Positions 3,524 through 6,773 of a stretch of 9,038 nucleotides of DNA are shown piece after piece. Numbering within the stretch: the stretch's first letter is position 1; each line of letters opens with the position of its first letter. This DNA is from Bacteriovoracaceae bacterium UBA1018. Its GTDB lineage: Bacteria; Bdellovibrionota; UBA1018. The notes under the pieces are model-generated. The model did not search any database. It saw only the letters and a program-made list of their open reading frames with translations, and was not told where the DNA came from. Position numbers and translations under genes: made by a program. The stretch covers positions 4,871 through 13,908 of the forward strand of contig DBAE01000134.1 in NCBI GenBank assembly GCA_002291495.1, written 5' to 3'.

Positions 3524-3647
3524 TCCATTCATGTGACGTCAGCCGCCCAGGACGGTGACTCGTGTTGGGGTGAGCCGGCGCATTTGATGAGCGTGAAGCG
3601 GAAAAATTAGTGGTGGGTTCTTTCCTCTGTTTTGCTTAGGTTATTGA

Positions 3648-3662
3648 GAGACTAAGAGTCTC
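3648..3662. repeat. Short perfect hairpin
   Basis: GAGACT and AGTCTC form a 6-bp stem around AAG. Neither strand has a T-run after it, so I do not call it an intrinsic terminator. It could be part of a weak 3' end for the acyltransferase transcript. Confidence 0.3.
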
Positions 3663-3692
3663 GTTATCACTGGCTCTCATTCACGCATCGCA

Positions 3693-3723
3693 ATTATTTT
3701 AGAACGTTTAATTTTAAAATAAT
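3693..3723. repeat. AT-rich 12-bp hairpin
   Basis: ATTATTTTA (3693-3701) is perfectly complementary to TAAAATAAT (3715-3723). Three further pairs, one a G.U, extend the stem inward to 12 bp with a 7-base loop. It lies in the gene-free region and has no U-tract after it on either strand. Possible transcript 3' end structure, protein-binding site or mobile-element remnant. Confidence 0.45.
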
Positions 3724-4124
3724 GCGCTTGTGTACCTCTGTCTCTAGCGAGCTAAACAGCAGGTAGACAACGAAAGCAAAGCACAGAAAGGTTTTCCCTT
3801 TGATATTTCAATTTTAGATACCGTGAGGATTGAGGGAGTCAAACCGGATTAAATTATAAAACCAAAAACAGGTGCCGCAATAAGTCGCAAAAAACCTCGC
3901 GAGCCCAAACCAAATTGGAAGAATCTACTCGGGAATGCCGAAGGTTTTATTTCTAGACAGACAATCAGCTTAGCAATTGGAAGGCGCTTAATGTCATTTC
4001 CCCATACCCTTCCAAGTAACGCAAAAAGACCGATATAGCATCCTTCTATAGTAATTAGGCGAGCCAGATTACAAAGAAAGTACTAGTGCGATAAACGAGG
4101 ACTAGTTCTTCAAGCAGGAAAAGA

Positions 4125-4895
4125 CTACTCTTCAACCTCGAGAGAAAGGTTCGTCTCCACGTGTCTAACGCCCAAGGGGGACATGATTACTATTCCGGTC
4201 TTATCGTTGTAATCTAGAAGCCTCTTCTTATGTAGAGCTGCAAGCACTTTCGACTTGAAAAGCGAAGAATTGGTATATTCGACCCACGAACAAAGCTGGT
4301 CATCTTTCGCTCCTGAAGGAGGACAGGAGTAGAGCAATAGTAGAACCTGCTCCCACTTTTTTAGATTTGGATCCAAGACCCTTTTTCCATGGCTTGTACT
4401 CCAGACGACTGGTGTTGTGCGTTCAATAATTAACTCAACGGCTTCCGTCGCTGCTTCAGTGGTTACACCGTGAAAAATTCGAACTAGTTCTGCCAAGAGC
4501 CATTTGGAAATAGAAAGGACGACTTCTGAATCCATTCGATTCGAATCCACGTCTCCACCAACGTGGCCAACACCTCGATTATTTCTAACTTCGTAAAGCG
4601 AAATCAACATCCTGGGAATCTGAATCCGAACTGACCTGGGAAACTTATTCTGGTCGGCATTCTCGAAATCCCTGCATGCTTGTACCATATTCGCGGGCTT
4701 ATACGGTTTGACGACAAAATTGCCGTCCACGTGCCCCTTCAATATCGTGTAAACTACTTCACTTAGCCTGCCGCCATCCAGCTCAGCGGGCTCCCATCTA
4801 TCTTCGCGGTAGTTTTTCAACAGCTTGTTAAACTCGGCGATGAGCGCTTCCCGCAAAGTGGTCGGAATACTTTTTAGTATCTCATCCTTTTTCAT
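4125..4895 (-). CDS. HEPN-motif protein with C-terminal winged helix, unknown function, candidate RNase of a defence-like module
   Basis: The 256-aa protein is mostly helical. Residues 101-114 read YEVRNNRGVGHVGG, giving Arg104-Asn-x5-His111, the R-polar-x-H pattern of HEPN ribonucleases found in abortive-infection and toxin-antitoxin systems. The helices around it (86-103 and 121-142) suit the HEPN four-helix bundle. An ELDGGRLSEVVYTILKG segment (38-54) seems to be another family signature. Residues 178-248 look like a winged helix: a leading helix, a possible recognition helix (SSLFKSKVLAALHKKRLL) and a wing ending in IVIMSPLGVRHVE. The start codon overlaps the stop of the preceding gene as ATGA. 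A weak AAGG lies about 15 bases upstream, so translational coupling is likely. It is the last gene of a three-gene operon. Nuclease activity is inferred from the motif alone. It could instead be a non-catalytic helical protein. Confidence 0.8.
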   Translation of the reverse strand: MKKDEILKSIPTTLREALIAEFNKLLKNYREDRWEPAELDGGRLSEVVYTILKGHVDGNFVVKPYKPANMVQACRDFENADQNKFPRSVRIQIPRMLISLYEVRNNRGVGHVGGDVDSNRMDSEVVLSISKWLLAELVRIFHGVTTEAATEAVELIIERTTPVVWSTSHGKRVLDPNLKKWEQVLLLLYSCPPSGAKDDQLCSWVEYTNSSLFKSKVLAALHKKRLLDYNDKTGIVIMSPLGVRHVETNLSLEVEE

Positions 4896-5434
4896 TGTTT
4901 GAGTTTAGCCTTGCGTTTCTTTCGGGAATTAGTATTCGCAGAACTCGCCTTTTGACGGCCAGGAAGCGCATCTACAAAATTTTGCCCAAAATAAGAAAGG
5001 TGATGCATATGGCTCGCTTTTCCACCTTTTACAAAGAGGCCCGCCTTTTTCGCATTCCTCATGTCGAACGCAAAATTTACGGCATCAAAATTACGTCTCG
5101 CCTCACCAAAAATATTCTCGAAGTCCTTCTTCGAGTGCTTCTGGTCACCTCTAACAATCTCACGAAATCGAGCCGCAACAGCTAATTCCTCCTGTTTGTT
5201 CTTTGGATCTTTGGCAGCAAAATATCCTACTGGGTCACTTAGATTCCCCGTTTCTACACGGGGAAGAGGGAGAGAATCTCTAGGAGAATGCGTGGCATTC
5301 CCAGGAACAGGAACTGGATCATTTCCAAACAGGGTAGCCACAGCACCAAGAACCCTCGTAATGTCTTGTGGAGATAAATCCTTCAGCAATTCGTAGACTT
5401 TTCCCACCAATACGCCGATATTATCGACTGTCAT
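4892..5434 (-). CDS. Winged-helix-like protein with basic tail, unknown function
   Basis: The 180-aa product has three parts. Residues 1-37 form a short helical segment (VYELLKDLSPQDITRVLGA). Residues 38-66 are a Pro-rich, probably flexible linker. Residues 67-158 resemble a winged helix (YFAAKDPKNKQEELAVAARF, then SKKDFENIFGEARRNF, then NAKKAGLFVKGG, ending LSYFGQNFVDALPG). The tail at 161-180 is strongly basic (RKKRKAKLKQ) and could bind nucleic acid. I do not recognise a named family. The start is supported by GGAGAAGGG just upstream of ATG 5434. It overlaps the preceding gene by 14 bases and the following HEPN-motif gene by 4, so the three are surely co-transcribed. The winged-helix core resembles the C-terminal half of the divergent protein at 5903-6382. 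A DNA- or RNA-binding partner or regulator of the HEPN protein is a reasonable inference. Confidence 0.8.
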   Translation of the reverse strand: MTVDNIGVLVGKVYELLKDLSPQDITRVLGAVATLFGNDPVPVPGNATHSPRDSLPLPRVETGNLSDPVGYFAAKDPKNKQEELAVAARFREIVRGDQKHSKKDFENIFGEARRNFDAVNFAFDMRNAKKAGLFVKGGKASHMHHLSYFGQNFVDALPGRQKASSANTNSRKKRKAKLKQ

Positions 5435-5696
5435 GCCCTTCTCCGTGCTGATGCGCCCGGAAGGCAGCGCGGTTTATAGTTTTAAAAAGTTCTTCAGTCC
5501 TACCGTCGGAATAGTTCATTTTGGACTTTAGTGATTTTTCACAGAAACAGGCATACCTATATAACGACACATCGTCGTCTGCCGGACATTGTTGTTTATA
5601 CCAGCGGAAAAACAACACACTCAATGGGTAAGTTACATTTAAAGAACGAAGGCGATTATAATACCACATTTGAAAATTCTGTTTGCGCGCCGCCAC
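5421..5696 (-). CDS. Small aromatic-rich protein, first gene of the HEPN operon
   Basis: The 91-aa product is unrecognised. It is rich in aromatic residues (WYYN, FFRWYKQQ, YRYACFC), has three cysteines (37, 50, 52) with no clear metal-site spacing, and a His-rich end (AHQHGEGH). No signal peptide or membrane segment is evident. The start is uncertain: GTG 5696 has GGAGG only one base upstream, while the next in-frame start, ATG 5669, has no ribosome binding site. The frame remains open upstream to about 5790 without a start codon. The 14-base overlap with the next gene and its place behind a good promoter support it being real. It may be a small adaptor or antitoxin-like partner, but the sequence alone does not show that. 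Confidence 0.6.
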   Translation of the reverse strand: MAARKQNFQMWYYNRLRSLNVTYPLSVLFFRWYKQQCPADDDVSLYRYACFCEKSLKSKMNYSDGRTEELFKTINRAAFRAHQHGEGHDSR

Positions 5697-5728
5697 GCCT
5701 CCACTACAGACTTCTTTTTGGGTCTTCG

Positions 5729-5782
5729 AATCAGACTGGACGGACTTGAGAGCCGCGGCCCTAGAGGGTAAAGAGTCTGATT
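5729..5782 (-). promoter_or_regulatory. Foldable 5' leader of the HEPN operon
   Basis: AATCAGACT (5729-5737) and AGTCTGATT (5774-5782) are perfect 9-bp inverted repeats. With the promoter at 5790-5817 the transcript would begin near 5783, so this stem would form at the very 5' end of the leader. The enclosed 36 bases can pair further through AGGGC/GCTCT around CGCG (one G.U). It could affect mRNA stability or translation, or be a protein-binding site. Confidence 0.45.
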
Positions 5783-5789
5783 TCCGCCG

Positions 5790-5817
5790 ATTCTAACGGG
5801 AATCAATTTTCAATCAA
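5790..5817 (-). promoter_or_regulatory. Candidate sigma70-like promoter of the HEPN operon
   Basis: On the minus strand TTGATT (5817-5812) and TAGAAT (5795-5790) are spaced by 16 bases. The -10 matches five of six consensus bases and the -35 four. Predicted start is near 5783, giving a leader of about 87 bases to GTG 5696. An AATCAATT direct repeat covers the -35 and spacer, suggesting repression. Confidence 0.5.
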
Positions 5818-5819
5818 TT
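5801..5819. repeat. Two AATCAATT direct repeats, 11-bp period, possible operator
   Basis: AATCAATT occurs at 5801-5808 and again at 5812-5819. The 11-bp period puts the copies on nearly the same DNA face, as for side-by-side binding of a regulator. They overlie the -35 and spacer of the minus promoter and lie upstream of the divergent gene at 5903, so one regulator could control both. Confidence 0.4.
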
Positions 5820-5902
5820 CCATTAAGAATACTGAATTTTGTCCGATACTAATTTGGAGTTACAGCAGAAATGAACGTGGCATATTCTAGACGAGGATAA
5901 AG

Positions 5903-6382
5903 ATGAACGGCAAAGTAAGAATCAAATTTGGTGCAATGGAAATTGATTTTGAAGGTTCAGAACAGTTTTTGAAGGATGAATTTCTCGAAATGATCACGAC
6001 TATTTATGGCTTAGCAAAAGAATCAGGAGTCGATCTATTTCAGAATAGTATTCGGCAATCTGAAACCAATTCTTTTGTCAACTCAATTGGTACGATAGGA
6101 ATGAACACCGTAGCACAAAAGCTATTGGCAAATAATGGTCCAAGTCTCACCTTGGCTGCCGCGGTAAAGCTGGATGTCGTCGATAAGAAGTCAAAATTTA
6201 CGAGTAAAGAAATACTTGCTGAGATGAGAAAAGCCACTTCTTACTTTAAAAGCTCGTACTCAAAAAATTGCGCCACAAATATTTCGTCCCTGATAAAATC
6301 GGGGAAATTAAATGATGTAGGTTCAGGATACTATTCAATACCTGCAACCCTAAAAGGCGAGTTAGCTAATAAACTAAAATAA
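5903..6382 (+). CDS. Winged-helix-like protein divergent from the HEPN operon, unknown function
   Basis: The 159-aa product opens with a beta-rich segment (KVRIKFGAMEIDFEGSEQFL, residues 4-23), then a helix (24-39), a polar linker (43-65) and a C-terminal domain (70-159) that reads as a winged helix: SLTLAAAVKLDVVD, FTSKEILAEMRKATSYF, a central NCATNISSLIKSGKL and GYYSIPATLKGELANKL. The C-terminal half resembles the winged-helix part of the 180-aa protein encoded at 4892-5434. I recall similar proteins annotated only as hypothetical. ATG 5903 has GAGG six bases upstream, a good ribosome binding site. The gene is divergent from the HEPN operon across a 206-base regulatory region and could regulate it or take part in the same system. 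Its 3' end overlaps the convergent gene by 17 bases. No clear own promoter was found. Confidence 0.8.
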   Translation: MNGKVRIKFGAMEIDFEGSEQFLKDEFLEMITTIYGLAKESGVDLFQNSIRQSETNSFVNSIGTIGMNTVAQKLLANNGPSLTLAAAVKLDVVDKKSKFTSKEILAEMRKATSYFKSSYSKNCATNISSLIKSGKLNDVGSGYYSIPATLKGELANKLK

Positions 6383-6773
6383 CACGAACGCACATCAATA
6401 AATAATATAAGAAACCATCTCCTGATTTGATTCGATTTCTTGTACCGGACTTATTGAAAAAATCAATCTCTCCATTCATCGCCACGCGCACGCGAAAGCC
6501 ATTGGGGAGTTTTACAAAATTAGACTTGTAACCACTGGCTCCGTACTTAGACAGTGGGATCTTTGCACTCACTTGGATCAGCGCATCCGCCGCAACGCCA
6601 TCGCATAGACCTACGCCCTGCTTGCTTGCCAGTTTTCTGACCGCTGGTAATTGAAGTAGCTCAAAGAGGGCCTTGGGTGGTGCCACGCAAGAGTCGACCA
6701 CTTGCGACGCAGCACCTACATGGGTCGCGACCATCAAAGGCACTAGAGCTAGGATATAAAGGCTATGGAACAT
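6366..6773 (-). CDS. Small secreted protein, unknown function
   Basis: The 135-aa product begins with a Sec signal peptide: hydrophobic residues 5-19, likely cleavage after the VGAA stretch at 19-22. The mature part has Cys29 and Cys57 (DSCVAPP, GLCDG), which could form a disulfide in the periplasm, a helical region (34-52) and a probable beta part (VKLPNGFRVRVAMNGEIDFF). AGGGAG lies five bases before ATG 6773, a strong start. I do not recognise a family. The last 16 residues (GFLYYLLMCVRVILVY) are unexpectedly hydrophobic and lie in the overlap zone with the convergent 159-aa gene. This may be a frameshifted or read-through end: another frame gives a TGA at 6397-6395 that would avoid the overlap. 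The signal peptide and start are well supported; the C-terminus is not. Confidence 0.7.
   Translation of the reverse strand: MFHSLYILALVPLMVATHVGAASQVVDSCVAPPKALFELLQLPAVRKLASKQGVGLCDGVAADALIQVSAKIPLSKYGASGYKSNFVKLPNGFRVRVAMNGEIDFFNKSGTRNRIKSGDGFLYYLLMCVRVILVY

What the first reader, a model, noticed from the sequence alone, without database searches (positions are those of the whole stretch)
4125..6382. Candidate uncharacterised defence-like module: HEPN-motif protein, two winged-helix-like proteins and a small aromatic protein
Three minus-strand genes overlap by 14 and 4 bases, ending in a protein with an R-N-x5-H motif of HEPN type and a C-terminal winged helix. A divergent gene shares the winged-helix-like domain with the middle gene. 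HEPN nucleases are common effectors of abortive-infection and toxin-antitoxin systems, usually paired with a DNA-binding regulator or sensor. I do not recognise this combination as a named system. The defence role is inference; the overlaps and motifs are seen directly.
Basis: partly seen in the sequence, partly recalled or inferred. Interest (0 to 1): 0.7.

Follow-up and report, generated by a model that had tools for sequence, protein, structure and literature searches.

The report
Shared switch protein for swappable toxins
Next to a predicted RNA-cutting (HEPN) enzyme, this bacterium carries genes of a partner-protein family that in other genomes sits beside several different toxin-like enzymes; together they likely form a self-shutdown defence against viruses, which has yet to be tested.

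Summary
The HEPN gene (4125-4895, minus) is real and belongs to a large unnamed family: 2970 homologues with E<=0.001 and no confident Pfam, NCBIfam, PADLOC or PHROG match for the window protein. R104 and H111 are present in 79 of 79 diverse members. The models show a HEPN-like bundle followed by a MarR-like winged helix.

The middle gene (4892-5434) is its conserved partner: in 74 of 80 distinct loci a same-strand gene lies directly upstream of the HEPN gene, 68 of these overlapping it or within 20 bp. The divergent gene (5903-6382) is a second partner of another subtype. The 91-aa ORF is doubtful.

The partner family is not tied to this HEPN. Searches of three taxa found it in 36 of 811 genomes; in 35 a toxin-like gene is adjacent (29 by profile, 6 by my reading): this HEPN, a second HEPN family with reversed domain order, ParA plus RelA/SpoT-like synthetase, or rarer ones. 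In G241 the same two partner types flank the second HEPN. This is a modular toxin/partner system, probably anti-phage. Defence, toxicity and neutralisation are inferred; enrichment near known defence genes was not shown.

The parts
4125..4895 (-). HEPN1 effector gene, 256 aa: N-terminal HEPN-like helical domain (residues 1-158, about 4422-4895) and C-terminal MarR-like winged helix (residues 174-256, about 4128-4376)
   Evidence: 2970 homologues with E<=0.001; AF2 models with mean pLDDT 91.1 and 90.9; structure comparison; 79-member alignment
4563..4586 (-). HEPN active-site motif R104-N105-x5-H111
   Evidence: R104 and H111 in 79 of 79, N105 in 77 of 79; R104 near the end of helix 87-105, H111 in the following loop, as described for HEPN domains in PMC3710099 (passages)
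4892..5434 (-). A-type partner gene, 180 aa, directly upstream of and overlapping the HEPN gene by 4 bp; probable winged-helix protein with a Lys-rich tail (fold not modelled)
   Evidence: 74 of 80 distinct loci have a same-strand gene at this place; partner profiles
5903..6382 (+). DIV gene, 159 aa: second partner, of a D-like subtype, divergently transcribed
   Evidence: The DIV-family profile picks D-type partners out of 7438 ORFs (best 2.4e-6); hhalign 88.4%, E 2.8e-6; a relative stands next to an A-type partner again in L138
5421..5696 (-).
   Evidence: No match outside this genome in the collections searched, negative codon score, 141 of 2000 shuffles as long

Best explanation
The window carries a small module in which a predicted RNA-cutting HEPN enzyme is likely held inactive by one or two partner proteins encoded beside it and would be released by an infecting virus, stopping the cell. 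Shown: a HEPN-family protein with an R-N-x5-H motif is encoded directly downstream of a partner gene in scattered genomes of many phyla; the partner type changes together with the HEPN lineage; some loci carry a second partner, nearly always of another subtype; and the same partner family sits beside other toxin-like effectors in place of this HEPN. Inferred: the HEPN domain cleaves RNA; the partner, made first and co-translated, binds and restrains it; the fast-changing partners carry the sensing of a trigger; the trigger is phage infection; the outcome is growth arrest or death. The exchange of effectors while partners stay is what a guard/toxin design predicts.
Confidence: 0.6

Rival explanations
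1. A plain type II toxin-antitoxin or addiction module: the HEPN RNase is the toxin and the partner the antitoxin; it maintains itself or its island or responds to stress, without a phage role.
For: Gene order partner first with overlapping ends; effector exchange resembles the antitoxin partner swapping described in PMC10440598 (passages); VapBC near the plasmid copy; RelA/SpoT-like effectors.
Against: Usually one copy per genome (25 copies in 24 genomes) and rarely on plasmids; two or three different partners beside one effector are unusual for a simple addiction pair.
Confidence: 0.22
2. The winged-helix parts bind DNA and target the HEPN protein to foreign or damaged DNA, so that it acts like a restriction-type nuclease rather than a restrained toxin.
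For: Both effector HEPN families appear to carry a winged helix, at opposite ends (modelled for the first; read from the sequence for the second); MarR-type fold; giant HEPN/wHTH proteins were proposed to recognise invading DNA directly (PMC3710099, passages).
Against: RelA/SpoT-like and phosphorylase-like genes in the same slot are not nucleases (by reading), so DNA targeting is unlikely to be the common theme.
Confidence: 0.1
3. A chromosomal regulator or RNA-processing pair with a housekeeping job in the species that have it.
For: Mostly single copy; the HEPN protein is strongly conserved across phyla.
Against: 3 of 368 genomes in the host phylum, 5 of 163 in another family; the HEPN branch with D-type partners holds five named phyla and one unlabelled row.
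Confidence: 0.05

Closest known systems
Panacea (PanA) hyperpromiscuous antitoxin network, NetFlax (PMC10440598; passages read)
   Same: One antitoxin-like family next to many unrelated toxins, including RelA/SpoT-type toxSAS; two-gene modules; a sensor role is proposed for the shared domain.
   Different: A Pfam scan of 69 partner proteins at E<=0.01 gives three families with one member each, none of them Panacea. Here two or three partner genes, mostly of different subtypes, can lie beside one effector. Nothing has been tested experimentally.
HEPN/MNT (HepT/MntA) toxin-antitoxin (PMC7641770; start of abstract in search listings)
   Different: The partner shows no similarity to a nucleotidyltransferase in the Pfam scans. 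HEPN1 carries an extra winged helix and an R-N-x5-H spacing.
AbiV, an RNase in a two-component antiphage system of Lactococcus (PDB titles 9bj5-9bj7)
   Same: HEPN RNase in a two-component antiphage system; Foldseek lists many AbiV chains for the domain model.
   Different: The Foldseek matches are weak (E 0.68 and worse). PMC3710099 describes AbiV as lacking the H of the Rx4-6H motif (passages), whereas HEPN1 keeps it in 79 of 79.
Abi_C (Pfam PF14355) and other weak Pfam matches
   Same: 2 of 79 HEPN1 members give a weak Abi_C match, best E 0.04.
   Different: Far from a confident assignment. Two other families match as weakly (UBM 6 of 79, best 6.1e-4; DUF3197 3 of 79, best 7.6e-4), and the window protein has no Pfam match up to E 1.
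PADLOC candidate PDC-M16B (PADLOC-DB 2.0.0)
   Same: 2 of 69 partner proteins match it, best E 1.6e-5, so some relatives may already sit in a candidate list.
   Different: 67 of 69 partners (E<=0.01) and all 79 HEPN proteins (E<=0.1) do not match it; a paper search for the name found none.

Membership tests
HEPN superfamily | Rx4-6H motif with a polar residue after the R | tested here: met
   R104 and H111 in 79 of 79, N (77) or S (2) at 105; six residues between R and H, at the upper end of the range given in PMC3710099 (passages)
HEPN superfamily | Helical bundle with R at the end of a helix and H in the following loop | tested here: met
HEPN superfamily | Metal-independent RNase activity | not testable with these tools
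   Needs expression and an RNA cleavage assay
Type II toxin-antitoxin | Two-gene operon with the antitoxin-like gene first and overlapping or near-overlapping ends | tested here: met
   74 of 80 distinct loci same strand; 68 of the 74 overlapping or within 20 bp
Type II toxin-antitoxin | Toxicity of one protein and neutralisation by the other | not testable with these tools
   No experiment
Panacea (PanA) antitoxins | Panacea domain in the partner | tested here: not met
   Pfam scan of 69 partner-family proteins at E<=0.01: only single matches to PadR, DUF5860 and CHS4; that Pfam holds a Panacea model is recalled
HEPN/MNT | MNT nucleotidyltransferase partner | tested here: not met
   No nucleotidyltransferase family in Pfam scans of the window partner and of 69 partner proteins
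Known PADLOC defence systems | Model match for the system's proteins | tested here: not met
   Window proteins: only weak matches, best AbiEi to DIV E 0.005 and PDC-M24A to the middle protein 0.036; 79 HEPN proteins: 17 families with 1-2 members each, best E 0.0012; 69 partners: best PDC-M16B, 2 members, 1.6e-5
Defence-island resident system | Enrichment of known defence genes nearby | tested here: inconclusive
   Matched scans of 148 near and 126 control genes; some loci do have R-M-, Vsr- or RloB-like neighbours by sequence reading

The most novel reading that the evidence does not exclude
The partner proteins are a previously undescribed, highly promiscuous family of guard/sensor proteins, working singly or in sets of two or three, that arms at least five kinds of toxin (two HEPN RNase families, ParA plus RelA/SpoT-type synthetase, a PLD-like nuclease, a nucleoside phosphorylase) across bacterial phyla; different partners beside one toxin would let it answer to several different phage triggers.
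Probability: 0.45. Interest if true: 0.85.

Novelty: new variant of a known kind. Interest (0 to 1): 0.7.

Why it matters
It would also be a second natural example, beside Panacea, of one guard family controlling unrelated toxins. The sets of different partners around one effector make the question of how such systems recognise several triggers directly testable.

Tried and rejected
Considered and rejected: (a) the 91-aa ORF as a component. (b) A direct relation of the divergent gene to the middle gene by profile comparison (0.7%); only the indirect link stands. (c) A conserved third gene beyond partner and HEPN: clustering of the neighbours shows none at a fixed offset. (d) Free mixing of partner types among HEPN lineages: the opposite was found. 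A Pfam scan of the same 148 neighbours lists phage integrase 2, rve integrase 2 and phage capsid 2; it has no control.

Led nowhere: PDB sequence searches with HEPN1; plasmid, phage and viral-contig searches with HEPN1 (one search found one remote relative); plasmid searches with two partners (one found only itself, one nothing); PDB sequence checks of the PLD-like, HEPN-like and Mrr-like neighbours, which stay motif readings from recall. A weak match of the second HEPN family to PDB 9wx2 'Dandelion-hepn' (E 0.39) could not be followed: none of the ten papers listed, of 430, was about it.

Literature: eight answered searches listed no paper whose title or abstract start describes this pair or the partner family. 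I read passages of PMC3710099, PMC10440598 and PMC13092281 only. The library lacks most subscription papers and holds few preprints, so this is weak evidence of absence.

Limits of counts: one search counted the window's locus twice (as L001 and W); one search gives the distinct numbers used here. Partner subtypes A-E were assigned by eye for 58 of 70 distinct upstream proteins and the profiles were trained on them. In one search, 10 of 82 loci have a second partner ORF; in L005 both are A-type and the second belongs to a ParA/RelA-SpoT unit; the window itself is not among the 10 at that threshold. Alignment A3 contains the window's own divergent protein, so its hit is by construction. The centre genomes were positives by choice and are counted. 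Of the 8 HEPN1 loci in the family of G373, L239 is broken (hits in two frames, and the motif histidine is an arginine) and L242 is short; of the 8 second-family loci, L247 is split. L186 and L184 are cut by contig ends. The PLD-like, phosphorylase-like, HEPN-like (L183, L231) and 'RGTA' (L184, L240) labels are my reading of the sequence, from recall. List limits: one search keeps 80 of 96 loci; one search lists 120 of 2970 proteins, of which 42 were aligned (A1); the domain model used 57 sequences (A7).

Full report
The observation. The ORFs named in the finding exist at the given coordinates; the overlaps are 4 and 14 bp. Three of the four behave like genes: the HEPN gene, the middle gene and the divergent gene score positive in their own reading frame (+0.067, +0.118, +0.106 per codon; a small training set). 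The 91-aa ORF does not (-0.020), 141 of 2000 shuffles of the spacer give an ORF as long, and it has no relative in the phage or plasmid collections. The window lies in a draft genome of 294 contigs. A 61%-identical relative of the divergent protein is labelled Bdellovibrionota, so the host is probably of that phylum (inference).

The partner. In 74 of 80 distinct loci the gene directly upstream is on the same strand; 70 of these are 110-270 aa long, and 68 of the 74 overlap the HEPN gene or lie within 20 bp. These partners are far more variable than the HEPN protein (mean column identity 14% in A3 against 43% in A2). I sorted 58 of 70 by eye into five subtypes A-E. Of ten pairs of subtypes, hhalign links six: A-C 97.5% (over 44 columns), B-E 96.5%, A-E 93.3%, A-B 90.1%, B-D 88.0%, C-E 81.5%; A-D, B-C, C-D and D-E are not linked (0.2-20.9%). 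Profiles trained on these find a partner in 75 of 82 loci (17 of the 24 loci not used for training) and in none of 20 control regions with 1755 ORFs from the same genomes. On the HEPN tree partner type needs 8 changes against a least possible 4 and a shuffled mean of 35: partner and HEPN stay together through horizontal spread. A genome-wide search of 27 genomes (24 HEPN1-positive ones, the window's own, G120 and G241) gives 34 partner matches, all beside an effector (effector places).

Second partners and the divergent gene. In 10 of 82 loci a second partner ORF lies within 0.7 kb of the HEPN gene, in 9 of them of another subtype. Sets of three are seen in L233 and L235. The window's divergent gene is such a second partner: the profile of its own family (8 proteins) picks D-type partners out of 7438 ORFs (L068 2.4e-6, L060 4e-5; L057, unsorted but in the same tree branch, 8e-6), and hhalign gives 88.4%, E 2.8e-6 over 141 columns. 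Locus L082 has the same divergent layout. P0132 (a relative of the divergent protein) and P0010 (a HEPN relative) both list a longest contig of 9931 bp, probably one contig; not verified.

Exchange of the effector. A search for the partner, not the HEPN, in whole genomes gave 7 of 368 (host phylum), 8 of 195 (family of G372) and 21 of 248 (family of G373), the centre genome counted each time. I read the surroundings of all 36. HEPN1 is adjacent in 12 (one copy broken, L239). A second HEPN family, 237-251 aa where intact, with a winged-helix-like N-terminus and a motif R-x4-H at the C-terminus, is adjacent in 14 (one split, L247); of 15 such proteins aligned (these 14 and the plasmid copy below) 11 keep the motif R. 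ParA plus a RelA/SpoT-like synthetase follows an A-type partner in 4 (G242, G677, G714, G773; G714 also has the second HEPN). For the G242 copy, PDB sequence matches name these two proteins ParA/Soj-like (best 7.2e-29 to an uncharacterised protein, ParA 9.6e-13) and GTP pyrophosphokinase (1.5e-5). That makes 29 of 36 by profile. Six more were read by me from the sequence and are not confirmed by a library: a PLD-like protein (L185), HEPN-like proteins with other motifs (L183, L231), a phosphorylase-like protein (L244) and a family with an RGTA-ELREVL motif (L184, L240). One partner is an orphan (L237). In G241, a member of the host phylum without HEPN1, an A-type partner and a relative of the divergent protein flank the second HEPN. 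This is the window's module with another effector in it. The divergent type also stands directly upstream of the second HEPN in L204, L232 and L235. A B-type partner precedes the second HEPN on plasmid pLM19O1 of Ochrobactrum, near VapBC and an integrase. L005 and L201 carry the ParA/RelA-SpoT version beside a HEPN version.

How it most likely works. Shown: co-occurrence, gene order, motif, effector exchange and patchy spread; the fold is predicted. Inferred: the HEPN domain is a toxic RNase; the partner, translated first, restrains it; the rapidly changing and sometimes multiple partners sense a trigger; release of the effector arrests the cell and limits phage. The variety of effectors (RNase-like, a synthetase related to alarmone enzymes, nuclease-like and phosphorylase-like proteins) fits a guard that is indifferent to the toxin it holds, as proposed for Panacea (PMC10440598, passages).

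Against. The neighbourhood test did not show enrichment in known defence genes. HEPN1 was not found in plasmid, phage or viral collections beyond one distant archaeal plasmid relative. DefensePredictor (PMC13092281) reports four HEPN-containing systems among those it validated; the passages I read do not describe this pair. No experiment exists.

Novelty. The parts are of known kinds. The partner family and its range of effectors are not named in Pfam (69 partner proteins), in NCBIfam or PHROGs (window proteins only), in PADLOC (apart from two weak members), or in the titles and abstract starts that my searches listed. I rate it a new variant of a known kind (promiscuous toxin/antitoxin-like defence modules) with a fair chance of being more.

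Noticed in passing
L138:6496-8380 (G241:C62): A-type partner, wHTH-HEPN protein (motif LRNSCGHPN) and a relative of the window's divergent protein side by side in a genome without the window's HEPN family.
   Followed up: yes
L186:1-2024, L200:5487-7838, L201:6155-8499, L241:5148-7405, L005:11398-13721: Recurring three-gene unit: A-type partner, ParA/Soj-like ATPase and a RelA/SpoT-like synthetase; in L005 and L201 it lies beside a HEPN version.
   Followed up: partly
L202:2489-7436 and L203:3589-8534: A long partner plus second HEPN preceded by an ATPase and a RloB-like protein and followed by a 343-aa protein, in the same order in two genomes; possible composite defence locus (labels by reading).
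   Followed up: no
L239:475-1300: A naturally broken HEPN1 copy: hits in two reading frames and the motif histidine replaced by arginine.
   Followed up: no
L140:5681-6870 (G048): A distant HEPN1 relative (27% identical) with a short partner of another subtype (F) downstream, near an integrase-like gene and a large R-M-like gene (labels by reading).
   Followed up: partly
L183:4359-8465 (G319): Partner between an Mrr-like fragment and a HEPN-like protein (DYRNYIHP), with Vsr-like and cytosine-methyltransferase-like genes next door; labels are by reading.
   Followed up: partly
window 3524-4124: About 600 bp without a listed ORF of 60 aa or more downstream of the HEPN gene; no tRNA found in the window.
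   Followed up: no
window 6366-6773: A 135-aa minus-strand ORF overlaps the 3' end of the divergent gene by 17 bp (convergent); no Pfam family above its cut-off.
   Followed up: no
PDB 9wx2 ('Dandelion-hepn'): Solved HEPN structure with an unfamiliar system name, weakly similar (E 0.39) to the second HEPN family; no paper on it was found in one search.
   Followed up: partly
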